DNA of 37,977 bases from Bacteroidales bacterium (GTDB lineage: Bacteria; Bacteroidota; Bacteroidia; Bacteroidales; Salinivirgaceae): assembly GCA_012519055.1 (NCBI GenBank), contig JAAYQU010000038.1, forward strand, positions 1 to 37,977, given 5' to 3'. The notes under the pieces are model-generated. The model was given only the letters and a program-made list of their open reading frames with translations. It was not told where the DNA came from and made no database searches. The translations under genes and the position numbers were made by a program. Shown here one piece after another: positions 18-16,645 of this stretch (positions are counted from its first letter, which is position 1; every line of letters begins with the position of its first letter).

Positions 18-557
18 ATGATAAAAATAGTTGCATATACTAAAACTGTTGTGTTCAGTGTATTTCTAACTATTATTTGTAATTTATTAGTTGGGCAGAA
101 TAATATCACCTCTAAGATCAGAATTTTAAGGGGTTCAAATGTTGGCTTTAATTTTAACTCCTACAACCGAATTCAGAATGGCATAACCTATAATGATTTC
201 ACACAACTTCAACTCTATTTTAACGATACAGTAGCCGGAGGAATACCAAACCCGACATCACAAGGTTGGCAGTTAACTGTAAGAGCCTTGCAGCCAAATA
301 TTTCAGGAAGTATGACTACCTCCACTCTCCCATTAGAGTCTATTAAAATTACAATAAAGAAGAACGGTATAAATTACGGACCTTATGATCTTGGGGCAAC
401 TGAACTACTTCTTATCGATGGCCCAGATGCAACTCTCAATGATAATGTGGAAGTCAGTTACTCCTGCGGAACAGACTCGAACCCTAACTATAACATGATT
501 AATAAAGTTCCCGACTACTACGTTGTGGATATTGAATTTACACTAAAACCTCAATGA
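18..557 (+). CDS. Small secreted protein, possible pilin-like subunit
   Basis: I do not recognise the family. The 179-residue product starts with a hydrophobic signal peptide (about residues 1-26, ending in VGQ). The rest is rich in Thr, Asn, Ile and Tyr with alternating hydrophobic residues, suggesting a beta-sandwich secreted or surface protein. It contains only one Cys. Its stop overlaps the start of the large outer-membrane gene that follows (ATGA overlap), so the two are very likely co-translated. A small secreted beta-protein directly before an outer-membrane barrel with Ig-like and OmpA domains recalls a subunit and its export or anchoring platform, but this role is inference. The reading frame is open to the window edge. 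I chose the ATG at 18 because the signal peptide begins there and another frame closes at 13-15, which could be the end of an upstream gene. Confidence 0.7.
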   Translation: MIKIVAYTKTVVFSVFLTIICNLLVGQNNITSKIRILRGSNVGFNFNSYNRIQNGITYNDFTQLQLYFNDTVAGGIPNPTSQGWQLTVRALQPNISGSMTTSTLPLESIKITIKKNGINYGPYDLGATELLLIDGPDATLNDNVEVSYSCGTDSNPNYNMINKVPDYYVVDIEFTLKPQ

Positions 558-3500
558 AACATAATGTTAATACAGTTATATTATTTTTTATTTTGGTTTG
601 TTTAAAAAACGCTCCAACATTTGGGCAATTCTCATTTTTTGAAGAGCCTTATAATATGTTAGAGTCATCGTTTATTAAAGATAAAGAGGAAATTGACCCA
701 CAAACAAGTTTTTTTAATGTCCTAAAAGTAGTAAATCCAACCGACAGACGTTTGCGATTTGAAGTTAGTTTCGGTACTCCCGTGGGTTGGGTATTAATGG
801 GTGAACGAACACAATCGGTAGTGTTAGCTCCGGGGGAGACAAAGCTAATTCCTTTACGAATTTCTGCCAATGCTTATACAATGGGTGATATTGGCTACAC
901 AATTGTAGCCTCACTAAAAGATAATACAGGAAAAGTATTCAAAAACAGCTATTCATTTATCAATGTCCCCAAAAGAAGTGAAATTAAATATAAGCTACTA
1001 GAAAGAAATCTATATTTCGATCAGTACCTTAAAAACACCACATTGTCTATGAAGTTCTCAAACACTGGGAATGTAAACGAGTTAATATATGTAAGCATTA
1101 ATTTACCCCAAACCGTAACAATTGAAGGGGCACAAGACAATTCCTTTAAAGATGACTTTATCCTAAATTCAAACAAAGACACTATAGTCAATTACAATGT
1201 ACAACTAAAAAACAGCATTGAAGCTTACGAACAACAAAATCACGGATTATACGTCGAGGCAGGAAGTAAAGATACACTGTATAAATCAACTGTCTGGATT
1301 AAAAATCTAGACAGTAAGTACACACTAGAGATACCTGAAACTGATAGAATATTAGTTGCTGAGCTCGCTTTTTTAAATCTTTTTAGCGAAGGAAATCCTA
1401 TTTATGAAGGAGCATTTTGGGGTTCAATACATGGAAAGAATTCTCTTTTAGTCGACTATTTTTTTAGAACAATGGGAGAACAATTCTATAAAAAAGATCC
1501 TCTTATATATAACTACTCATACATTAAAACAATCCATAGAAACTGGGGCTTTAGATTGGGAGACTTAAATCAACCTGGAATGCTGACAGTCAACGGTAAA
1601 GGAGGACAGATTGATTTTAATCACAGAAGAATTAGAGCAACTGCTTCGGCAACAAAAAATTTTATAAGCGATATTACTGGGAAGGCAATAATAATCAAAA
1701 GTAAAATTAATAGAAGATTATCATTATCTGCAGGATATAGCCAAACTAAAAACAAAAACTACTCACAATCAAAAATGCCATCGGTAGGAGCAGGTTTTAC
1801 ATTATTTAAACACTATTCGTTAAAATTTGACTTAGGATATTCAATTACTGATAATCTTATCCAGAACGACAATAATCAGAAAAAAGGTTTTGGTGGGAAT
1901 GCCCTATTACAGATTAACTATCCTCGTTTTAGACTAAATTCAAGATTAATGTACGGTGAACCAAGTTTTGCAGGAATGCAAAGAGGCAAGATGGATTGGA
2001 ACAGCTATTTTGACTTAGATCTAAAAAATAGTCGTGGAATTTATGGTCGTCATAATGGTATTAACCAAGTACTACTTAACTTTAATAACTCTCCTCAAAA
2101 TATAGATAAAAGTATCTCTAATCATAACGTAAATATATTATACTACGCCCCCCTAACTAGTCAAGTCTCATACTCTGTTGGACCTTGGTACAATTACTTA
2201 GGAAGTAACTCCTTTTACCTATTCAATCCTGAACACTGGTTCGCGGTACATACATCTATGATAGATATTATTATTCGATATCGCAGTAACAGAACACCTA
2301 TAAACATAGGAGCAGAAGCTCGTGTTGGGGCAAGTCACATCTCTAAATACTCTACAGAGTACGGGGGATTTAATATATCAAATCTAAATCCTGAAAAAAC
2401 ATACCTAAATATGTATATTTCACTATATACAAATTTAAGAAACTGGAATTTTAATGCCGCATACTATCATGGACCATATACAATGGTAGAACACTACTCA
2501 AAATTTTATAATTATTTAAACCCAAAAACAGTACGACTTATCGGAGGATATAGAGTTCTGTTTTTCGAAAAGATATTTGAATACTCTGTTCGTGGAACAT
2601 ACTCTTATATAATACACGCTAAAACAAATCGTTTGGGGGTTAGTAATGAGTTGGTTGCTAGACCCGGTGGAAATTGGACGCTCTCACTAAGTAATTCAAT
2701 TGGTCATCAATCAACATTCGACAAGTTAACAGAAAATAAATACAAGTACAACAATTTGTATTTTGAATTTAGAATTCGTAAGGAGTTTGGCATTAACCAA
2801 CCAAAATTCAAATATCTAAATTTAGACCTTATTTTCTTTAAAGACCTAAACGGTAACGGCGTTAGAGATCCTAACGAACCTGGTGTTAGTAATGTTTTGG
2901 TTTCAATTGATAAAGATTGGGAATTGACCGACTCTCTGCTTGGAAAAGATAGACACGGAGAGTTTTATACCATGGAGTTTCTGTCTGATATAGACGGACA
3001 TGTAAGATATAAAAATATTCCCGATGGTTACTACACTGTAAACTTCACCCCTGTTGGTAAAAATATTGACAGCTTTGTGGCAGAAAGCTCACAACTTAGA
3101 TTACACCTAAAAAATTCAGATATAATTGAAATACCTTTCCAAGAAAGAAACAAAATATTTGGTCAAATAGTTATGAACCGTAGCAAGCTATCTAACCTTG
3201 GAACAATTGACATTTCAAATATTAAAGTTACCGCTGACGATGGTAAAGGTAAAATTTACTCGACACTTACTGACAAAAACGGACGTTTTGTTATTTATGT
3301 TCCAAATATTGAAAAATATACGGTTAGCATTAATAATATTTTTAGGGAACATTTTGAGTTAGAGCAAAACACATTTGATGTACAATTGAATGGCTACAAA
3401 CAATTTGAACTTTCCTTTATATTTACCGAAAAACAACGTCGTATCAATTTTGCACAACAAATTGATTTTAGTGGAGAAGGACAACAAATACAAGCCGTCA

Positions 3501-4114
3501 AACGTACTAATTTAGCAGGAACTGTTAAAGATGAGGCAACCTTTGCTCCAATTAAAGCTAATGTTAAAATTATTGATCAAGGGACTGGCAATACTATCAC
3601 AGAAACCGTTACAGATGGACGTTCTGGCAATTTCTATATGTCGTTTGTGTCAGGCGATAACTATCACTTAGATGTTACTGCAGAAGGTTATTGGTTCTAT
3701 TCCGAAGGGTTAATGGGAGAACAAATTTCAACATTCCTTAACTTAAATCGTGATGTTATGTTAACGGCGATAACAATAGGAAGTAAATTAACACTACACA
3801 ACGTTGTTTTCAATCGTAATGAATCAGGATTAAACGAAGAAGCAAGAGTTGAACTTTCTAAACTGCTAGATGTCCTAAACGCTAACCCAGGTATACAAAT
3901 TGAAATTGTTGGTCACTGCGATGATATTGAAGCCATTAACAATGTAGGAGTTGCTGAATCACGTGCGAAAGAGGTTATGAGATTTTTGGTTGAAAATGGC
4001 TACACCAATGTAACATCAAGAACAATGGGAGGAAGTGATCCTGTAATAAACGAGGCAACAGAAGAAGCACGTAGGATCAACCGCAGAGTTGACGCCATTG
4101 TTATAAGCAAATAG
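554..4114 (+). CDS. Usher-like multidomain outer-membrane protein with OmpA C-terminus
   Basis: This 1186-residue protein has a signal peptide (about 1-25). An Ig-like region of the NEW3/chaperone-like kind follows (about 45-250; VVNPTDRRLRFEV, LAPGETKLIPLRI). A long stretch of alternating aromatic and polar strands (about 280-750) is typical of an outer-membrane beta-barrel. An SdrD-B-like segment begins near 764 (DLNGNGVRDPNEPG). A second beta domain is followed by a CarboxypepD-regulatory-like domain (about 987-1070; LAGTVKDEATFAPIKANV). An OmpA-family peptidoglycan-binding domain ends the protein (about 1084-1186), with the GHCDD and ESRAKEVMRFL segments carrying the expected Asp and Arg. 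It probably sits in the outer membrane anchored to peptidoglycan. The barrel plus DxNxNG and carboxypeptidase-like domains recall alternative chaperone-usher ushers, but I see no diagnostic usher motif. A TonB-independent surface-assembly or porin role is equally possible. Confidence 0.75.
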   Translation: MKHNVNTVILFFILVCLKNAPTFGQFSFFEEPYNMLESSFIKDKEEIDPQTSFFNVLKVVNPTDRRLRFEVSFGTPVGWVLMGERTQSVVLAPGETKLIPLRISANAYTMGDIGYTIVASLKDNTGKVFKNSYSFINVPKRSEIKYKLLERNLYFDQYLKNTTLSMKFSNTGNVNELIYVSINLPQTVTIEGAQDNSFKDDFILNSNKDTIVNYNVQLKNSIEAYEQQNHGLYVEAGSKDTLYKSTVWIKNLDSKYTLEIPETDRILVAELAFLNLFSEGNPIYEGAFWGSIHGKNSLLVDYFFRTMGEQFYKKDPLIYNYSYIKTIHRNWGFRLGDLNQPGMLTVNGKGGQIDFNHRRIRATASATKNFISDITGKAIIIKSKINRRLSLSAGYSQTKNKNYSQSKMPSVGAGFTLFKHYSLKFDLGYSITDNLIQNDNNQKKGFGGNALLQINYPRFRLNSRLMYGEPSFAGMQRGKMDWNSYFDLDLKNSRGIYGRHNGINQVLLNFNNSPQNIDKSISNHNVNILYYAPLTSQVSYSVGPWYNYLGSNSFYLFNPEHWFAVHTSMIDIIIRYRSNRTPINIGAEARVGASHISKYSTEYGGFNISNLNPEKTYLNMYISLYTNLRNWNFNAAYYHGPYTMVEHYSKFYNYLNPKTVRLIGGYRVLFFEKIFEYSVRGTYSYIIHAKTNRLGVSNELVARPGGNWTLSLSNSIGHQSTFDKLTENKYKYNNLYFEFRIRKEFGINQPKFKYLNLDLIFFKDLNGNGVRDPNEPGVSNVLVSIDKDWELTDSLLGKDRHGEFYTMEFLSDIDGHVRYKNIPDGYYTVNFTPVGKNIDSFVAESSQLRLHLKNSDIIEIPFQERNKIFGQIVMNRSKLSNLGTIDISNIKVTADDGKGKIYSTLTDKNGRFVIYVPNIEKYTVSINNIFREHFELEQNTFDVQLNGYKQFELSFIFTEKQRRINFAQQIDFSGEGQQIQAVKRTNLAGTVKDEATFAPIKANVKIIDQGTGNTITETVTDGRSGNFYMSFVSGDNYHLDVTAEGYWFYSEGLMGEQISTFLNLNRDVMLTAITIGSKLTLHNVVFNRNESGLNEEARVELSKLLDVLNANPGIQIEIVGHCDDIEAINNVGVAESRAKEVMRFLVENGYTNVTSRTMGGSDPVINEATEEARRINRRVDAIVISK

Positions 4115-4388: not shown

Positions 4389-7040
4389 TCAAGGTTCCAC
4401 AACTATTGAATGCGTAGTTTTTGAAGTGTCTGTCTCAATAACAAACAGATATATCCCATTTGGCCAATTTTCTATACAAAGTTCTGAAATGGATGTTTGA
4501 GATTCAATAATTTTCTCCCCCAACAAATTGTAAACCGTTACTTTTTCGGGTATCTCTGAAAAACGTACCGTTTTATTTGCAGGATTAGGATAAATAATAA
4601 TACCTGATTTATTGAATTCTGATATCGAAGAGTAATAATTACGGAGATTTTGTACGTGTTGCTCGATTTGTAACACGTGACTATCTGTTAAAAATGCAAA
4701 CCTAATTAAGCGCGATTGAGCGGGTGGTAAAACATCTATTTTGGCACTTGTTAAATGCGCAGGTATTGTTTTTTCTAATGCATAAGTCATTTCTCTTGAA
4801 CTATTTAACGCTTGCCACATCTCTTGTGTGGTAAAGTTATCTGTTATATCAATTCCTTGTGGCGAAACTCCTGTATCGAAAGAGTAGTTGTTAAAGCTTT
4901 CTGTATCAGACAAAATAGCCAAACCATGCGTGTATGGATATATATCAATGCTTTTAGTAGTGACCAATTGCAACTGTCGATTTGTTGTAACAACTGCACC
5001 TGTTCGAACAATCCAATTTGCAAACATCCCAACTCTTATGTTTTCAATTGCCGCATCTGTGACATTTGTTACCGTAACCTCATATATAATAGCCTCACTC
5101 AACGGGTAGTCGCTTCCTGTATAAGCTGTTACCTGATAATCTAAACCTACCGAATTCGGCGAATTAATATCAGTAAAATAAGCCGTGGCTTGTTGCAATG
5201 TCATGTTTTCTTCATGGGAAACAGCTCTGTTTGAAGTAAAGTCAGCATTATCAAAAACTCCTCTAACAACTTTAACTTCCGATTTTCCTACAATTAATCC
5301 TACATCCCACATCAAAGAGCTTGAATTTCCTTTTCTAAATCCATTACCTGTTAGCGGCGATAAATTGTGATATGCAGGTTTTCCGACATTTGACAGGGTC
5401 ATTTTCATATCAAACATATCTATATCATACCATGATTTTTGGGTAGATATTGTCCTTACCGTACTGTAATTTCGACCATCAACGCTATATGTAAAGCGAA
5501 TTGGTATAAGTAAATCTAAAGTGGTGTTTGCGTCAATAATCAGACGTATATTATAATCCTCAAGTTGAACGATATCACCAGATTGCCAATTATTTACTGT
5601 AAATGTATTATTCGCAATGGAAACATACTCCGACAGTGGCAATATTGTTACAGCAACTCCGTTTTTTGAACACAATAAGTTTTTCAACTCTCCTTTTAAG
5701 CGATAAGTCTCGTTAGGGCTAACTTCCTCGGCATCAATAATTTTTGTAGGAATATTCAAGTAAAGCAGATTTGTATCAGATACAGCATTAAACATATCAA
5801 CCCTCCCCGCTCCCATTTTGTCTATATAAGGAACGTTTGCTGGCATGGTGTCTAACCACATTGCTGTTGCTTTTATTTGTGCAGCAACTTGATATGGATT
5901 CAAATGTGGTCGTAAAGATTTTACAACAGATGCAACTCCCGCCACTATCGGCGCAGCATTCGATGTGCCTGAAGTTGACGAATAAGTATTCCCAAAAGCT
6001 GTTGAAAGAATATTTTGTCCCGGTGCAGCAATATCTATTCGGTATCCGTACGTGCTTCCCTCCCACTTGTGATCGAATTGATTTGACGCCAAAACAGATA
6101 CAACTCCCGGATATGAAGCAGGATAGTAAAGATTTTCATTACGGCTGTTCCCTGCTGCAGCAACAACCAATACACCCAACTCATCAACAACATATCTAAT
6201 AACTTCTCTTCCGAGATTGCTGGGCATTACTCCTCCCCATGAACATACAATTATATTACAACCATGCTCGGCAGCATAAACAACACCCTCATATGATGAC
6301 TTTAACAACCCATTGTTACTCATTATTTTAACAGGTAAAATCTTAACCTCCGGTGCCACCCCGGCTATACCTACTTCATTATCTGATTTTGCTGCGACTA
6401 TTCCAGCCACTCCCACCCCATGAGGATTTACATCTGCGGTCACATTGTAGTTGTTTTCGGCAATATTCCACCCCATAAAATTGTCGATAAAACCATCACC
6501 GTCATCATCAATTCCATTTACTGGATCTAAGTAATTGTACGCAATTTGATCAACTAATTCAACATGTGTGGGATCAATGCCTGTATCAACAATTCCTACT
6601 ATTATGGTGCTATCTCCCATGCTTATATTCCAAGCTTCAAAGGCACTTATTAAATCGAGATAATACTGTGAGCCTACTAACGGATCATTAGGTTCGTAAA
6701 ATAGTTCTTGACAATCGCGGTACTCTATCCACTCAATAAAATCAAACTCTTGTATATATTTAAAAACTCTACCATCGTCGGGATTTGGCAATTTTACAGA
6801 TAAAATATTCCAAATTTTTGTCTCACTACCGCGATTGATGACGTTTTTTTGAAATAAAGGCTTAACACTAAACGACTTGTGCGATATTAAATCCTGAAAG
6901 TCTTTGATATATTGCTCTGATTTAACTTTAACCAATATCTCAGAATAATCAACTGACGGTTGTCCATGCAAAACTAATGGAGACAACAAAACTACGCATA
7001 GTAGTTTTAATAGACAATATGCTACTATTCTTACTCTCAT
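4389..7040 (-). CDS. Secreted subtilisin-like serine protease (S8) with T9SS sorting domain
   Basis: The 883-residue protein has a signal peptide (1-26, ending LHGQ), an inhibitor_I9-like propeptide (about 33-110) and an S8 peptidase domain (about 145-420). The catalytic triad is Asp152 (GIVDTGID), His207 (NPHGVGVAG) and Ser360 (SGTSNAAP); the oxyanion Asn is 298 (AAAGNS). A DDDGDGFIDN loop near 178-187 probably binds calcium. A beta-rich region of about 350 residues follows. The last 70 or so residues (from IIIYPNPAN) are a type A type IX secretion sorting domain, so the enzyme should be exported by T9SS and attached to or released from the surface. It is transcribed alone and converges on the small-RNA region. 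Its substrate cannot be read from sequence. Confidence 0.93.
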   Translation of the reverse strand: MRVRIVAYCLLKLLCVVLLSPLVLHGQPSVDYSEILVKVKSEQYIKDFQDLISHKSFSVKPLFQKNVINRGSETKIWNILSVKLPNPDDGRVFKYIQEFDFIEWIEYRDCQELFYEPNDPLVGSQYYLDLISAFEAWNISMGDSTIIVGIVDTGIDPTHVELVDQIAYNYLDPVNGIDDDGDGFIDNFMGWNIAENNYNVTADVNPHGVGVAGIVAAKSDNEVGIAGVAPEVKILPVKIMSNNGLLKSSYEGVVYAAEHGCNIIVCSWGGVMPSNLGREVIRYVVDELGVLVVAAAGNSRNENLYYPASYPGVVSVLASNQFDHKWEGSTYGYRIDIAAPGQNILSTAFGNTYSSTSGTSNAAPIVAGVASVVKSLRPHLNPYQVAAQIKATAMWLDTMPANVPYIDKMGAGRVDMFNAVSDTNLLYLNIPTKIIDAEEVSPNETYRLKGELKNLLCSKNGVAVTILPLSEYVSIANNTFTVNNWQSGDIVQLEDYNIRLIIDANTTLDLLIPIRFTYSVDGRNYSTVRTISTQKSWYDIDMFDMKMTLSNVGKPAYHNLSPLTGNGFRKGNSSSLMWDVGLIVGKSEVKVVRGVFDNADFTSNRAVSHEENMTLQQATAYFTDINSPNSVGLDYQVTAYTGSDYPLSEAIIYEVTVTNVTDAAIENIRVGMFANWIVRTGAVVTTNRQLQLVTTKSIDIYPYTHGLAILSDTESFNNYSFDTGVSPQGIDITDNFTTQEMWQALNSSREMTYALEKTIPAHLTSAKIDVLPPAQSRLIRFAFLTDSHVLQIEQHVQNLRNYYSSISEFNKSGIIIYPNPANKTVRFSEIPEKVTVYNLLGEKIIESQTSISELCIENWPNGIYLFVIETDTSKTTHSIVVEP

Positions 7041-12616: not shown

Positions 12617-13774
12617 ATGATTATAGGTATTCCAAAAGAAATTATGCCGGGAGAAGCTCGCGTTTCAGCTACCCCCGAAACAGTGAAAAAATTTGTTGCA
12701 GACGGTGCCAAAGTTTTGGTTGAAAAAGATGCAGGCATCGGCTCTTTCTTTAGCAATGAAGCTTACAAAGAGGCGGGTGCAACTATTATTAACTCGGCTA
12801 AAGAGGTTTTTGAAAAGTCAGACCTCATACTAAAGGTTAAGGAGCCGCAATTCAATAATGAGTTCAATGCTCACGAGGTTGACATGATGCATGAAGGACA
12901 GTATCTTGTAACATTCCTACACCCTGCAGCACCTGCAAACCACGATATGATTCGCAGTTTAGCTAAAAAGGGCGTTATTGGTCTAACTCTTGAAGGCGTT
13001 CCTCGCATATCGCGTGCACAAAACATGGACGGACTTACATCAATGAGTACTTGCGCAGGTTACAAAGGTATTTTGATGGCTGCTAATGCACTTCCAAAAT
13101 TCATTCCTCAGATGTTTACTGCTGTTGGTATGCTTCCTCCTTCAACAGTTCTTGTTGTAGGTGTTGGCGTTGGTGGATTGCAAGCTCTTGCTACCGCAAA
13201 AAGACTTGGTGCTGTTACTCACGCTGTTGATATCAGACCAGCTGCTATGGAGCAAGCAACAAGCTTAGGTGCAAAAGTATTCGACTTAGGCGTGCCTGCA
13301 GAACTTGCTATTGGCGAAGGTGGATATGCTAAATATCTTCCAAAAGAATGGCTTGCAAAAGAGAGAGAAAAACTCAACGAGATTTTGCCTCAAATGGATA
13401 TCGTTTTCCTAAGTGCTTTGGTACCAGGAAGAGTTGCTCCTATACTTATAACAGAGGATATGGTTAAGAGAATGAAACCAGGCTCAGTGATTATTGATAT
13501 TTCTATTGACCAAGGCGGAAACTGCGAAATTACACCTCCCGGAAAAACCGAAGTAAAACACGGCGTAACCATCTGCGGTATTAAAAACATTCCTGGAATG
13601 ATACCAACAAGTTCAACTCACATGTTTGCACACAACGTATATAGTTTTGTAAAAAACATGATGAAAGATGGAAAGGTTGTGATAGACAGAAGTGACGAGA
13701 TTATAAGTTCTACATTGGTTACAATTCAAAATGAAATCGTTCACGCTGGCACACGCGAAGCGATGAACATTTAA
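12617..13774 (+). CDS. pntA: NAD(P) transhydrogenase alpha subunit, NAD-binding domain dI
   Basis: This 385-residue protein is the soluble NAD(H)-binding component (dI) of proton-translocating transhydrogenase, in the split form (PntAA). It has the N-terminal AlaDH/PNT fold (IGIPKEIMPGEARVSATPE, 3-21), the RAQNMD loop (133-138) equivalent to the RQD loop contacting the nicotinamide, a Rossmann motif VGVGVGGLQALATAKRLGA (181-199), and Asp205 in VDIRP for the NAD ribose. NIPGMIPTSSTH near the C-terminus is also characteristic. All key dI residues are present, so NAD(H) binding should be intact. It is first in an operon with the two membrane subunits, though a hairpin separates it from the second gene. 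Confidence 0.95.
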   Translation: MIIGIPKEIMPGEARVSATPETVKKFVADGAKVLVEKDAGIGSFFSNEAYKEAGATIINSAKEVFEKSDLILKVKEPQFNNEFNAHEVDMMHEGQYLVTFLHPAAPANHDMIRSLAKKGVIGLTLEGVPRISRAQNMDGLTSMSTCAGYKGILMAANALPKFIPQMFTAVGMLPPSTVLVVGVGVGGLQALATAKRLGAVTHAVDIRPAAMEQATSLGAKVFDLGVPAELAIGEGGYAKYLPKEWLAKEREKLNEILPQMDIVFLSALVPGRVAPILITEDMVKRMKPGSVIIDISIDQGGNCEITPPGKTEVKHGVTICGIKNIPGMIPTSSTHMFAHNVYSFVKNMMKDGKVVIDRSDEIISSTLVTIQNEIVHAGTREAMNI

Positions 13775-13844: not shown

Positions 13845-14156
13845 ATGAATCCAATTTATTTAATCTTAATTTTTATTGTTGCCACACTTGTTGGTTACTT
13901 TATTATTAAAAACGTGCCGAGCCTGCTGCACACCCCGTTGATGTCGGGGATGAACGCTCTGTCTGGCATTACCATTTTGGGAGCAGTAGCAGCCGTTGGT
14001 TTGTCGGTACTGTATGAAGACCAAAGTATTGTAATAGGACAAATTTTTGGTGGTATAGCCGTAATAGCTGCAACAGTAAACGTAGTAGGCGGATTTGGTG
14101 TTACACACCGAATGCTTAAAATGTTCAACAAGAAAAAGAAAGGAGGTAAGAAATGA
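13845..14156 (+). CDS. pntAB: NAD(P) transhydrogenase alpha-2 membrane subunit
   Basis: The 103-residue protein has three to four membrane segments and the conserved SGMNALSGITILGAV segment of the PntAB/12TM family. It ends in a basic MFNKKKKGGKK tail. It contributes the first part of the proton-conducting dII domain. The ATG at 13845 is preferred to an upstream TTG inside the hairpin. Its TGA overlaps the start of the beta subunit (ATGA), so these two are translated together. Confidence 0.92.
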   Translation: MNPIYLILIFIVATLVGYFIIKNVPSLLHTPLMSGMNALSGITILGAVAAVGLSVLYEDQSIVIGQIFGGIAVIAATVNVVGGFGVTHRMLKMFNKKKKGGKK

Positions 14157-16645
14157 TATCTCCAACACTATATTTAATAATTTGTGCCGTACTTTCGGTA
14201 TTAGTTCTGTTGGGTATTTCCATGATGAGCAAGGTAAAAACTGCTGTTATGGGAAACTTCATCAGTGCAGTATGCGTATTTGCAGGAATAGTTATCACAT
14301 TGCTATACAATGAAATAGTTACGGTAAAAAGTATATACATCTATATACTTATCGGAACTATTATTGGTAGCATGTTAGCTGTCAGAGTAAAAATGATTGA
14401 AATGCCACAGTTGGTAGCCTTGCTTAATGGAGTTGGCGGTTTGGCTTCGGCTTTAGTGGGGATTCTTACTTTGCTTGGAATAGGACAATCACCGGATCAA
14501 AATTATCCAATTTTTTCAGATGTAACAGCAGTATTGGCAATAGTTGTAGGTATTGTTACTCTTGTAGGAAGTTTAGTTGCAGCGGGAAAACTGCACAAAC
14601 TTTTACCCCAGAAACCTGTTATTTGGAAAAATCACGCCGTTATTCTTAACATTAGTCTTATCATTCTTACGATTACCGTACTCTACTCAGCCTTTGTTGG
14701 CAATATCATAAGTCGATCTGTTGATATTGCAATAATATTGATATTGAGTATCGGAGTAAGCACCCTTTTTGGATACGCTTTCTCTATCCGCGTTGGTGGT
14801 GCAGATATGCCTATTACGATATCATTACTCAACTCGCTTAGCGGTGTTGCCGGAGCAATTGCGGGTATGGCGATAAACGATATACTATTAGTTTCTGTTG
14901 GAGGTATTGTCGGAGCCTCGGGGTTGTTCCTAACTCAAATTATGTGTCGCTCGATGAACAGGAGTTTGATGGATATCCTTACCGGAAAAACATCTGTTGC
15001 TGGTAAAAAACCTACAAAAACACAACCTGCTGCTGAAACTAAAAAAGTGGATAAAACTGCAACCAAACAGACCTCATCTGAAGCTGTTTTGCAGAAAGCA
15101 AAATCGGTAATTATCGTTCCCGGATACGGAATGGCGTTGGCACAAGCGCAACATTTGGTTCGCCAGTTAGCCGACAAGTTAGAGAGCAACGGCGCACAAG
15201 TCCGCTACGCAATACACCCTGTCGCAGGACGTATGCCAGGACATATGAACGTACTACTCGCAGAAGCCGACGTCTCTTACGAACAGCTCTACGAAATGGA
15301 CGCAATAAACGACGATTTCAAAAACACAGATGCTGTCATCGTTATCGGAGCAAATGACGTTTTAAACCCAGCCGCACGTGATGCTGTTGACACTCCTATT
15401 TACGGAATGCCAGTATTGAACGTTGACCAAGCTAAAGAGATATTTATTTGCAACTTCGACCTTAATCCGGGTTATGCAGGTGTTGATAACCCACTTTATA
15501 AAAAAGAGTCGGGAGTTCATCTACTGTTGGGCGATGCCAAAGAATCGGTTAGTCGCTTGATTTCTATGTTAGATAGCAAACCCGTACAAAGTTCCGATTC
15601 GAGAGACCAAAAATCAGAAGTTTTGCAGAAAGCTAAATCTGTAATTATCGTTCCAGGCTATGGTATGGCGTTGGCACAAGCACAACATTTAGTTCGCCAG
15701 TTAGCCGACAAGTTGGAAAGCAACGGCGCAAAAGTCCGTTACGCAATCCACCCTGTTGCAGGACGTATGCCCGGACATATGAACGTATTACTCGCAGAAG
15801 CCGATGTATCTTACGACCAGCTTTACGAAATGGACGCAATAAACGACGACTTCAAAAATACTGACGCAGTCATTGTTATTGGTGCTAATGACGTTTTAAA
15901 CCCAGCCGCACGCGATGCTGTAGACACTCCAATATACGGAATGCCGGTATTAAACGTTGACCAGGCTAAAGAGATTTTTATTTGCAACTTCGACCTTAAC
16001 CCAGGTTACGCAGGAGTTGACAACCCACTTTACAAAAAAGAGTCCGGCGTTCATCTACTGTTAGGAGATGCTAAAGAATCTGTAAGTAAGTTGATTTCTT
16101 TGCTAGACAGTAAACCTGCACAAGGTTCAGGTGCAAAAAAGGATAATTCATCAGAAGTTTTAAAGAAAGCAAAATCTGTAATTATCGTTCCAGGGTACGG
16201 AATGGCACTGGCACAAGCACAACATTTAGTTCGCCAATTAGCTGACAAGTTGGAGAGCAACGGTGCAAAAGTTCGTTACGCAATACACCCTGTCGCTGGA
16301 CGTATGCCAGGACATATGAACGTACTACTCGCAGAAGCCGACGTATCATACGACCAACTATACGAAATGGACGCGATAAACGACGACTTCAAAAATACCG
16401 ATGCTGTTATTGTTATCGGTGCAAACGACGTTTTAAACCCAGCCGCACGCGATGCTGTTGACACTCCTATTTACGGAATGCCTGTATTGAACGTTGACCA
16501 AGCTAAAGAGGTGTTTATCTGCAACTTCGACCTTAATCCAGGTTATGCAGGAGTTGATAACCCACTTTACAAAAAAGAGTCGGGAGTTCATTTGTTACTT
16601 GGCGATGCTAAGGAATCTGTTAACAAACTGATAAATATGATTTAA
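14153..16645 (+). CDS. pntB: NAD(P) transhydrogenase beta subunit with three tandem dIII domains
   Basis: The product is 830 residues; E. coli PntB has about 462. Residues 1-280 form the membrane domain dII with typical MPQLVALLNG, GGADMPITISLLNS and LTQIMCRSMNRSL segments. After a Lys/Thr/Ala-rich linker, the dIII nucleotide-binding domain occurs three times: about 312-474, 490-652 and 669-830. Each copy has PGYGMALAQAQ, HPVAGRMPGHMNVLLAEA, VIGANDVLNPAARD and GYAGVDNPLY. The copies differ at only a handful of residues but at many synonymous codon positions. The 2'-phosphate-binding Lys-Arg-Ser of E. coli PntB (424-426) is Asn-Phe-Asp in all three (434-436, 612-614, 791-793), so NADP(H) binding is doubtful. 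The subunit should couple hydride transfer to proton movement; what the extra domains do is unknown. It overlaps the preceding gene by four bases and ends before a palindromic terminator. Confidence 0.95.
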   Translation: MISPTLYLIICAVLSVLVLLGISMMSKVKTAVMGNFISAVCVFAGIVITLLYNEIVTVKSIYIYILIGTIIGSMLAVRVKMIEMPQLVALLNGVGGLASALVGILTLLGIGQSPDQNYPIFSDVTAVLAIVVGIVTLVGSLVAAGKLHKLLPQKPVIWKNHAVILNISLIILTITVLYSAFVGNIISRSVDIAIILILSIGVSTLFGYAFSIRVGGADMPITISLLNSLSGVAGAIAGMAINDILLVSVGGIVGASGLFLTQIMCRSMNRSLMDILTGKTSVAGKKPTKTQPAAETKKVDKTATKQTSSEAVLQKAKSVIIVPGYGMALAQAQHLVRQLADKLESNGAQVRYAIHPVAGRMPGHMNVLLAEADVSYEQLYEMDAINDDFKNTDAVIVIGANDVLNPAARDAVDTPIYGMPVLNVDQAKEIFICNFDLNPGYAGVDNPLYKKESGVHLLLGDAKESVSRLISMLDSKPVQSSDSRDQKSEVLQKAKSVIIVPGYGMALAQAQHLVRQLADKLESNGAKVRYAIHPVAGRMPGHMNVLLAEADVSYDQLYEMDAINDDFKNTDAVIVIGANDVLNPAARDAVDTPIYGMPVLNVDQAKEIFICNFDLNPGYAGVDNPLYKKESGVHLLLGDAKESVSKLISLLDSKPAQGSGAKKDNSSEVLKKAKSVIIVPGYGMALAQAQHLVRQLADKLESNGAKVRYAIHPVAGRMPGHMNVLLAEADVSYDQLYEMDAINDDFKNTDAVIVIGANDVLNPAARDAVDTPIYGMPVLNVDQAKEVFICNFDLNPGYAGVDNPLYKKESGVHLLLGDAKESVNKLINMI
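15086..15574 (+). repeat. In-frame dIII repeat, copy 1
   Basis: This encodes residues 312-474 of the beta subunit. It differs from copies 2 and 3 at a few residues, such as Gln349 where they have Lys and Glu377 where they have Asp. The stretch AAC TTC GAC at 15452-15460 encodes the Asn-Phe-Asp that replaces Lys-Arg-Ser. Confidence 0.95.
15620..16108 (+). repeat. In-frame dIII repeat, copy 2
   Basis: This encodes residues 490-652, exactly 178 codons after copy 1. The linker before it (475-489, SKPVQSSDSRDQKSE) is partly repeated before copy 3 (SKPAQGSGAKKDNSSE), so the duplicated unit included the linker. Asn-Phe-Asp lies at 15986-15994. Confidence 0.95.
16157..16642 (+). repeat. In-frame dIII repeat, copy 3
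   Basis: This encodes residues 669-830 and ends the protein. It differs from copy 2 at a few residues (for example KEV for KEI, NKLINMI for SKLISLLD) but at many third codon positions. Asn-Phe-Asp lies at 16523-16531. Confidence 0.95.

What the first reader, a model, noticed from the sequence alone, without database searches (positions are those of the whole stretch)
15086..16642. Transhydrogenase beta subunit with three tandem copies of the nucleotide-binding domain dIII
Known PntB proteins have one dIII behind the membrane domain. Here one membrane domain carries three, about 178 codons apart, with Lys/Ser/Gln-rich linkers that share residues. The copies agree at nearly every amino acid but differ at many third codon positions, so they are old enough to have diverged and are held by selection or gene conversion; this argues against an assembly fold-back. 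Because dIII moves or rotates between the NAD domain and the membrane in the catalytic cycle, three domains on one channel could raise turnover, allow binding of different partners, or serve as a local nucleotide store. I know of no described case.
Basis: partly seen in the sequence, partly recalled or inferred. Interest (0 to 1): 0.88.

Follow-up and report, generated by a model that had tools for sequence, protein, structure and literature searches.

The report
Transhydrogenase with three NADP-binding domains
A membrane enzyme that trades hydrogen between NADH and NADPH, described as carrying one NADP-binding domain per subunit, here carries three near-identical ones in a row, and relatives in several groups of anaerobic bacteria carry two to four, which offers a natural way to test how this moving domain works.

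Summary
ORF 14153-16645 encodes an 830-residue PntB: one membrane domain, then three complete dIII (NADP(H)-binding) domains on 14-20-residue linkers, behind ordinary pntAA and pntAB genes. The copies are 94-97% identical in protein, 87-88% in DNA (dN 0.02-0.04, dS 0.6-0.8). It is not an assembly artefact: arrays of 2-4 dIII occur in dozens of assemblies of Bacteroidales and Clostridia, including a single-contig genome (three copies). In the family of Porphyromonas loveana all 17 intact genes found have 2-4. In 265 Pseudomonadota genomes with PntB no array was seen. Of 128 tandem dIII domains, 125 keep all 32 positions that are near-invariant in single-dIII proteins; in four related species each of the three copies has dN/dS 0.024-0.030. 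Copies within a gene are mostly homogenised (36 of 48 genes), and copy number changed many times. I read it as a multi-arm transhydrogenase whose interchangeable dIII domains serve the dI and dII docking sites, like the tandem lipoyl domains of pyruvate dehydrogenase E2. That mechanism is inferred, not shown. Eight paper searches found no description. New variant of a known kind.

The parts
12617..13774 (+). pntAA: dI, NAD(H)-binding subunit (385 aa from the ATG at 12617; the listed ORF starts at a TTG, 12575). Single dI.
   Evidence: Pfam AlaDh_PNT_N and AlaDh_PNT_C
13845..14156 (+). pntAB: first helices of dII (103 aa from the ATG at 13845; the listed ORF starts at a TTG, 13812)
   Evidence: Pfam PNTB_4TM; PDB relatives 9l76_B, 4o9p_C
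14153..16645 (+). pntB: 830-aa beta subunit with three dIII domains; its start overlaps the pntAB stop
14153..15022 (+). dII membrane domain (aa 1-290): nine long helices in the model
   Evidence: Foldseek matches to 4o93_B and 5uni_B
15023..15082 (+). linker dII-dIII1 (aa 291-310, 20 aa); aa 281-307 have pLDDT under 50
15083..15574 (+). dIII copy 1 (aa 311-474)
   Evidence: domain-model hit over 164 of 164 positions; translation
15575..15616 (+). linker dIII1-dIII2 (aa 475-488, 14 aa); aa 476-486 have pLDDT under 50
15617..16108 (+). dIII copy 2 (aa 489-652)
   Evidence: domain-model hit over 164 of 164 positions
16109..16153 (+). linker dIII2-dIII3 (aa 653-667, 15 aa); aa 654-663 have pLDDT under 50
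16154..16642 (+). dIII copy 3 (aa 668-830), ends just before the stop codon
   Evidence: domain-model hit over 163 of 164 positions; translation

Best explanation
A split-alpha (PntAA-PntAB-PntB) transhydrogenase whose beta subunit has become a multi-arm protein. One membrane domain (dII) tethers three complete, equivalent NADP(H)-binding domains (dIII) by short linkers predicted to be disordered, six per dimer if it dimerises like known enzymes. Shown by sequence: all three are intact, each is under purifying selection, and in most genes the copies are homogenised, as expected if recombination (unequal exchange or gene conversion of a dIII-plus-linker unit) keeps levelling and resizing the array. 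Inferred: in the known cycle the one dIII of a protomer alternates between 'face-down' on dII, where NADP(H) exchanges and the proton step is coupled, and 'face-up' on dI, where hydride is transferred. With several dIII per protomer, one can sit on dII while another reacts on dI and a third waits loaded. The arms act redundantly, as the tandem lipoyl domains of pyruvate dehydrogenase E2 do, and relax the need for a single dIII to swivel back and forth.
For: Three whole dIII in one frame. Of 128 tandem dIII from 48 genes, 125 have no departure at the 32 positions near-invariant in the 88 genes scored single; the departures are one I-to-V in both copies of L021 and one G-to-E in L166 copy 1. Four related genes (L089, L090, L167, L168) keep positional orthology, and copies 1, 2, 3 have mean dN/dS 0.026, 0.030, 0.024 against 0.102 for the membrane domain; L022/L023 give 0.039 and 0.053 (membrane domain 0.017), L174/L173 copy 3 gives 0.038. 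First and last copies never differ at 74 columns and differ most often at the domain ends, so they look equivalent rather than specialised. Linkers between dIII are 14-41 residues, disordered in the model of the window protein; the normal dII-dIII linker is 14-19 residues (PMC5742237, passages). All 48 tandem genes have pntAA and pntAB in the locus, none with a second pntAA frame. In the family of Porphyromonas loveana 17 of 17 intact genes have 2-4 dIII. Face-up and face-down dIII are described in PMC5742237, PMC9529548 and PMC8551311 (passages); redundant tandem lipoyl domains in PMC8421416 (passages).
Against: Nothing here shows that extra copies dock on dI or dII, or that they raise activity. 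Purifying selection on each copy would also arise if a dead dIII merely poisoned the docking sites. Copy number changes readily (at least 26 changes on a tree of 108 genes) and many relatives have one, so the extra arms are not essential. In L022/L023 the dIII copies are not more constrained than the membrane domain. The structure model has pTM 0.49 and was made without PntA or a dimer, so it says nothing reliable about reach. The clade lacks the channel histidine at both positions known from structures, so even proton coupling is unproven.
Confidence: 0.45

Rival explanations
1. NADP(H) buffer or dosage: one dIII (the one next to dII) does the catalysis; the outer copies only hold NADP(H) tightly near the enzyme, or raise the local dIII concentration at dI for a non-coupled, cyclic reaction.
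For: Isolated dIII binds NADP(H) with an apparent Kd under nM, far tighter than in the holoenzyme (PMC5742237, passage), so an undocked copy would tend to keep its nucleotide. The conserved dIII motifs are kept in all copies.
Against: A store that releases very slowly is a poor buffer, and cells hold far more free NADP(H) than enzyme (general knowledge). A pure binder would not need to keep the surfaces that meet dI and dII, yet the copies of the window stay 94-97% identical over the whole domain.
Confidence: 0.2
2. Recombination-driven, nearly neutral array: this PntB clade is prone to in-frame dIII duplication; unequal exchange moves the number up and down and conversion keeps copies clean, while extra copies give no benefit and are kept intact only because broken ones would interfere.
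For: Copy number changes at least 26 times on the membrane-domain tree, 16 times between single and multiple (one row, L177, was mis-scored as single, so each number may be one too high). Copies within a gene are each other's nearest relatives in 36 of 48 genes. L027 carries one dIII that begins like copy 1 and ends like copy 2 of the otherwise near-identical L013, the footprint of a deletion or of an assembly collapse.
Against: In the Porphyromonas loveana family no intact single-copy gene was found beside 17 intact arrays (G924 and G909 re-checked), although deletion between copies should be easy. Positional orthologs are retained at membrane-domain dS of about 0.2 (L089 group, L022/L023) and, for copy 3 only, 0.76 (L173/L174), with dN/dS of 0.02-0.05.
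Confidence: 0.28
3. Specialised copies: the three dIII have different roles, for example one always on dII, one always on dI.
For: Position-specific fixed differences exist: 12 sites in L089/L090/L167/L168, 13 in L173/L174, 14 in L022/L023; two columns (315 and 457 in the numbering, one higher than the protein's) recur in all three groups.
Against: In the L089 group all 12 sites lie at the domain ends next to the linkers; in the other two groups they are scattered. The 74 columns that never differ between first and last copy in 48 genes hold the conserved motifs (middle copies were not in that count). Copies are homogenised in most genes.
Confidence: 0.06
4. Assembly artefact or fold-back.
For: Many short-read assemblies do break inside this repeat, so it is hard to assemble; scaffold gaps lie in the repeat of L036 and N runs in L045/L181.
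Against: Copies differ at about 12% of bases, mostly silent. The 48 distinct tandem genes come from dozens of assemblies, among them a single-contig 2.2-Mb genome (G345, 3 copies) and the named complete genome Petrimonas sp. IBARAKI (L013, 2 copies).
Confidence: 0.01

Closest known systems
Proton-translocating NAD(P) transhydrogenase with split alpha subunit (Thermus thermophilus type; PDB 4o9u)
   Same: Same three-gene make-up with dI, dII and dIII; conserved dIII motifs kept; Asp and Arg of the dII-dIII salt bridge kept.
   Different: Three dIII instead of one. Neither the Thermus channel histidine (alpha2 His42) nor the E. coli one (beta His91) is present; the window has Ser and Asn there.
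Single-dIII members of the same PntB clade (for example L044, L056, L059)
   Same: 54-63% identical to the window over the best segment. Of the 88 genes scored single, 81 have PntAA and 85 PntAB in the locus. The 52 in the clade lack the same channel histidine.
   Different: One dIII.
Tandem lipoyl domains of pyruvate dehydrogenase E2 (E. coli E2p, three lipoyl domains)
   Same: A varying number of near-identical carrier domains that act redundantly as swinging arms (PMC8421416, passages). Works like it, by inference.
   Different: No homology. dIII binds a nucleotide non-covalently and sits on a membrane channel.
Eukaryotic alpha-beta and beta-alpha fused transhydrogenases, including tandem whole nth genes in Porospora (PMC7614955, passages)
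   Same: Known rearrangements of the same domains.
   Different: There whole genes are tandem or subunits fused; no multiplied dIII within one chain appears in the passages seen.

Membership tests
PntB / proton-translocating NAD(P) transhydrogenase | PF02233 dII plus dIII, homologous to solved PntB | tested here: met
   1056 bits to PNTB against a cut-off of 31.7; PDB 9l76, 4o9u, 6qti by sequence and fold
PntB / proton-translocating NAD(P) transhydrogenase | PntA partner: dI and 4TM piece in the operon | tested here: met
   PntAA and PntAB directly upstream; present in the loci of all 48 tandem genes
PntB / proton-translocating NAD(P) transhydrogenase | Conserved NADP(H)-pocket motifs in dIII | tested here: met
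   The 32 near-invariant positions (PGYG, IH.VAGRMPGH, GA.DV.N and others) are intact in all three window copies. That these motifs line the NADP(H) pocket is recalled from the dIII structures
PntB / proton-translocating NAD(P) transhydrogenase | One dIII per beta subunit (usual form) | tested here: not met
   Three. This is the usual architecture, not a criterion of the Pfam family
PntB / proton-translocating NAD(P) transhydrogenase | Central channel histidine at the E. coli beta-91 (TM9) or Thermus alpha2-42 (TM3) position | tested here: not met
   Asn and Ser in the window; Asn and Ser/Ala in 100 of 100 clade genes, 48 tandem and 52 single. The review says the position may shift between species (PMC5742237, passage); a His in alpha2 'VTHRML' in 62 of 100 is the only partial candidate seen
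PntB / proton-translocating NAD(P) transhydrogenase | dII Asp-Arg pair (E. coli D213-R265) | tested here: met
   Window D218 invariant and R270 nearly invariant in a 23-row alignment; kept in 100 and 98 of 100 clade genes (whose numbering is one higher)
PntB / proton-translocating NAD(P) transhydrogenase | Hydride transfer coupled to proton translocation; dimer | not testable with these tools
   Needs protein
Tandem carrier-domain enzymes (PDH E2 type) | Homology to a lipoyl or biotinyl carrier domain | tested here: not met
   Pfam lists PNTB and weaker nucleotide-fold families (TPP_enzyme_M, ETF_alpha, and DUF2486 below its cut-off), no carrier domain. The first 24 Foldseek rows are transhydrogenase, later ones other enzymes, none a lipoyl domain among the 50 shown. 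Analogy only

The most novel reading that the evidence does not exclude
A natural series of one- to four-arm transhydrogenases in which dIII domains are exchangeable swinging nucleotide carriers: hydride transfer on dI and the binding-change/proton step on dII run at the same time on different arms, so that strict alternation of one dIII, as in the textbook enzyme, is not a requirement of the mechanism, and array length works as an adjustable gear. Since the clade also lacks both known channel-histidine positions, its coupling may be organised differently.
Probability: 0.35. Interest if true: 0.82.

Novelty: new variant of a known kind. Interest (0 to 1): 0.62.

Why it matters
How dIII moves between the hydride-transfer site and the proton channel, and whether the two protomers must work in opposite phase, is an open mechanistic question of transhydrogenase. 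Enzymes that carry 2-4 dIII on one channel, beside close relatives with one, are a ready-made experiment. They also show recurrent multiplication of one catalytic domain within a chain, with copies levelled by recombination over long times, and they warn that short-read assemblies of these genomes often break inside this gene.

Tried and rejected
Assembly artefact: rejected.

Single origin of tandem arrays: holding the 48 tandem genes together on the membrane-domain tree is rejected (p-AU 1.2e-58). The tree is a quick one with long branches, and the group was named after the data were seen; loss, transfer and repeated gain were not separated. L177, a frame-broken four-copy gene, was scored single. 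L036 and L040, incomplete arrays, were scored single, and L081.

Tandem dIII in classical PntB: 299 Pseudomonadota genomes were searched with PF02233, 265 matched. 253 have exactly one match, which excludes an array if extra dIII are reported separately, as they are in the window; at most five candidates were scored per genome. The 12 with more than one match, plus 3 others, were re-listed: separate full genes or fragments on other contigs, and in G1199 a 75-aa fragment 1.2 kb downstream; no array.

Rows dropped: the set of 136 intact genes leaves out truncated genes, genes with partial dIII hits and exact duplicates. L115, L116 and L192-L194 were not scanned for domains. Of the 95 order-level genomes with only distant matches, 22 loci (L093-L114) were scanned; the rest are judged from match range and frame length.

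Possible counter-example checked: the match G924:C14 looked like a lone single-dIII gene; its frame runs off the contig end just after the first dIII, and G909's runs off after the membrane domain.

Second structure job and complex modelling: not run; the tool predicts single chains.
Full report
WHAT IS THERE. Window 14153-16645 (+) is one open frame of 830 codons. Pfam identifies PNTB (1056 bits, three stretches). A PF02233 search of the window's own genome (2.71 Mb, 53 contigs; the window is contig C38) returns one full-length match and two dIII-only matches, all in this frame, and no other PntB. The dIII copies lie at 15083-15574, 15617-16108 and 16154-16642 (whose frame numbering is one higher than the protein's). 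PntAA (dI) and PntAB (4TM) precede it. The copies are 94-97% identical in protein and 87-88% in DNA, with dN 0.019-0.038 and dS 0.62-0.82. Judged by eye from the site map, the differences of each copy are spread along the domain, without an obvious recent conversion tract.

IT IS NOT AN ARTEFACT AND NOT UNIQUE. One scan of GTDB species genomes kept 80 loci (the query was the triple gene and the best 80 of 161 were kept, so arrays are over-represented). A domain count found 4 dIII in L011; 3 in L007-L010, L012 and L014-L018; 2 in L013, L019-L026, L028, L029, L031, L033, L034 and L045; at least 2 in L040 and L081, which are cut off. L036 has scaffold gaps inside the repeat and L045 an N run. Record titles name Dysgonomonas, Parabacteroides, Massilibacteroides, Petrimonas (a complete genome) and Porphyromonas loveana, and Clostridia/Firmicutes metagenome assemblies.

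HOW COMMON. Same order as the window: 393 genomes searched, 103 with a match. Eight carry the window's PntB clade (match of 57% identity or more), and seven of those have at least two dIII (G000, G301, G310, G193 and G345 three; G209 two; G280 at least two, contig broken); G001 has one. G345 is a single contig. The other 95 have only matches of 45% identity or less and frames of 585 aa or less; 22 of these loci were scanned and all have one dIII. Class of G400 (L016, Clostridia by its title): 391 genomes, 16 with a match, two with three dIII (G728, G400), 14 with one. Family of G402 (L018, Dysgonomonas): 101 genomes, 24 with a match; 8 intact arrays (four with 2, three with 3, one with 4), one fragment with at least two (G840), 14 with one (G877 cut at its front), one unresolved (G813). 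Family of G408 (L045, Porphyromonas loveana): 38 genomes, 32 with a match; 17 intact genes, 4 with two dIII, 8 with three, 5 with four; the other 15 are fragments or are broken by contig ends, N runs or frame breaks, and no intact single-dIII gene was found. Pseudomonadota: 299 genomes, 265 with PF02233, no array seen. Some genomes recur between these samples.

ARE ALL COPIES FUNCTIONAL? In 136 distinct intact genes (88 scored single, 22 double, 20 triple, 6 quadruple) I took the 32 positions that are at least 99% invariant in the singles. Of 128 domains from tandem genes, 125 have no departure. Mean identity to the single-dIII consensus is alike for first (0.775), middle (0.787) and last (0.780) copies. 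Within-gene copy pairs have a median dN/dS of 0.087 (97 of 118 pairs, those with dS between 0.1 and 1.5; highest 0.37). The best test is a set of four related three-copy genes that keep positional orthology (L089, L090, L167, L168): mean dN/dS is 0.026, 0.030 and 0.024 for copies 1, 2, 3, tighter than the membrane domain (0.102). Against a simple reading: in L022/L023 the copies (0.039, 0.053) are less constrained than the membrane domain (0.017); L013/L136 give noisy ratios on very few changes; and purifying selection shows only that a bad copy is harmful, not that an extra one is useful.

HOW THE ARRAYS EVOLVE. In 36 of 48 tandem genes even the least similar pair of copies is closer in DNA than any copy is to another gene of the set. 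In related pairs with equal copy number, such as window/L007 and L009/L010, within-gene dS (0.4-0.8) is below between-gene dS (1.5 to saturated). So copies are homogenised, or arrays rebuilt. At shorter distances (L089 group, L022/L023, L013/L136) positions are still orthologous; in L173/L174 only copy 3 is. Some dIII-dIII linkers are repeated exactly (L012, L018, L117, L162, L172), so the unit is dIII plus linker. L027, near-identical to L013 in the membrane domain, has one dIII that starts like copy 1 and ends like copy 2: a deletion by recombination, or an assembly collapse. On a membrane-domain tree of 108 genes copy number changes at least 26 times, 16 times between single and multiple (one row mis-scored), and one clade of tandem genes is rejected. 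The dIII tree puts L009/L010 with the Dysgonomonas/Parabacteroides group, whereas the membrane-domain trees put them beside the window and L007. dN agrees: window-L009 is 0.080 in dII but 0.14-0.17 in dIII, window-L007 0.092 and 0.04-0.05. The dIII part has therefore probably moved between lineages.

STRUCTURE. AlphaFold2 with 23 sequences: mean pLDDT 77, pTM 0.49, nine long helices, then three alpha/beta domains; 281-307, 476-486 and 654-663 below pLDDT 50. Foldseek's best matches are PntB structures 9l76, 4o9u, 6qti and 6s59, then dIII structures such as 1pno and 2fsv. The relative placement of domains is not reliable.

MECHANISM. Known enzymes are dimers in which dIII alternates between face-up on dI and face-down on dII, on a 14-19-residue linker (PMC5742237, PMC9529548, PMC8551311; passages). 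I propose that several equivalent dIII per chain let both sites be served at once, by analogy with the three redundant lipoyl domains of E. coli E2p (PMC8421416, passages). Equivalence is supported: 74 columns, conserved motifs among them, never differ between first and last copy in 48 genes. Docking by each copy, and any gain in rate, are inference. The main rival is a recombination-prone array with little benefit.

A SECOND ODDITY OF THE CLADE. At the channel-histidine positions known from E. coli (beta 91) and Thermus (alpha2 42) all 100 clade genes tested, 48 tandem and 52 single, have Asn and Ser/Ala. So do 15 of 33 genes outside the clade (Asn and Ser), so this is not tied to the arrays. 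What carries the proton, or whether coupling is kept, is open.

NOVELTY. Eight paper searches aimed at transhydrogenase (open-licence PMC only; most hits seen as listings) gave no paper describing more than one dIII in a chain. The nearest, PMC7614955 (passages), treats fused forms and whole-gene tandems in eukaryotes. Subscription journals were not searched. I file it as a new variant of a known kind.

Noticed in passing
window pntAB (13845-14156) and pntB (14153-16645); 100 clade genes: Neither known channel-histidine position (E. coli beta-91, Thermus alpha2-42) holds His; Asn and Ser/Ala instead in 100 of 100 clade genes. A His in alpha2 'VTHRML' occurs in 62 of 100.
   Followed up: partly
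L027 5001-6431 against L013: Membrane domains nearly identical, but one dIII instead of two; the single dIII is a chimera of copy 1 (front) and copy 2 (back): recombination deletion or assembly collapse.
   Followed up: partly
L028 4506-7088: The PntAB match lies in the same open frame as a two-dIII PntB, so PntAB appears fused to PntB.
   Followed up: no
L009, L010 against window and L007: Membrane-domain and dIII trees disagree, suggesting exchange of dIII segments between lineages.
   Followed up: partly
L019 and L021 (Massilibacteroides vaginae MV12, two contigs): Two separate two-dIII PntB genes in one strain.
   Followed up: no
L183, L184, L187, L189, L191: Contigs end inside the first dIII: short-read assemblies break at this repeat, so intact arrays are probably under-counted.
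   Followed up: partly
window 4389-7040 (-): Subtilase with a C-terminal Por secretion tail domain, consistent with a type IX-secreted protease of Bacteroidota.
   Followed up: no
window 554-4114 (+): 1186-aa protein with CarboxypepD_reg, SdrD_B-like and C-terminal OmpA domains.
   Followed up: no
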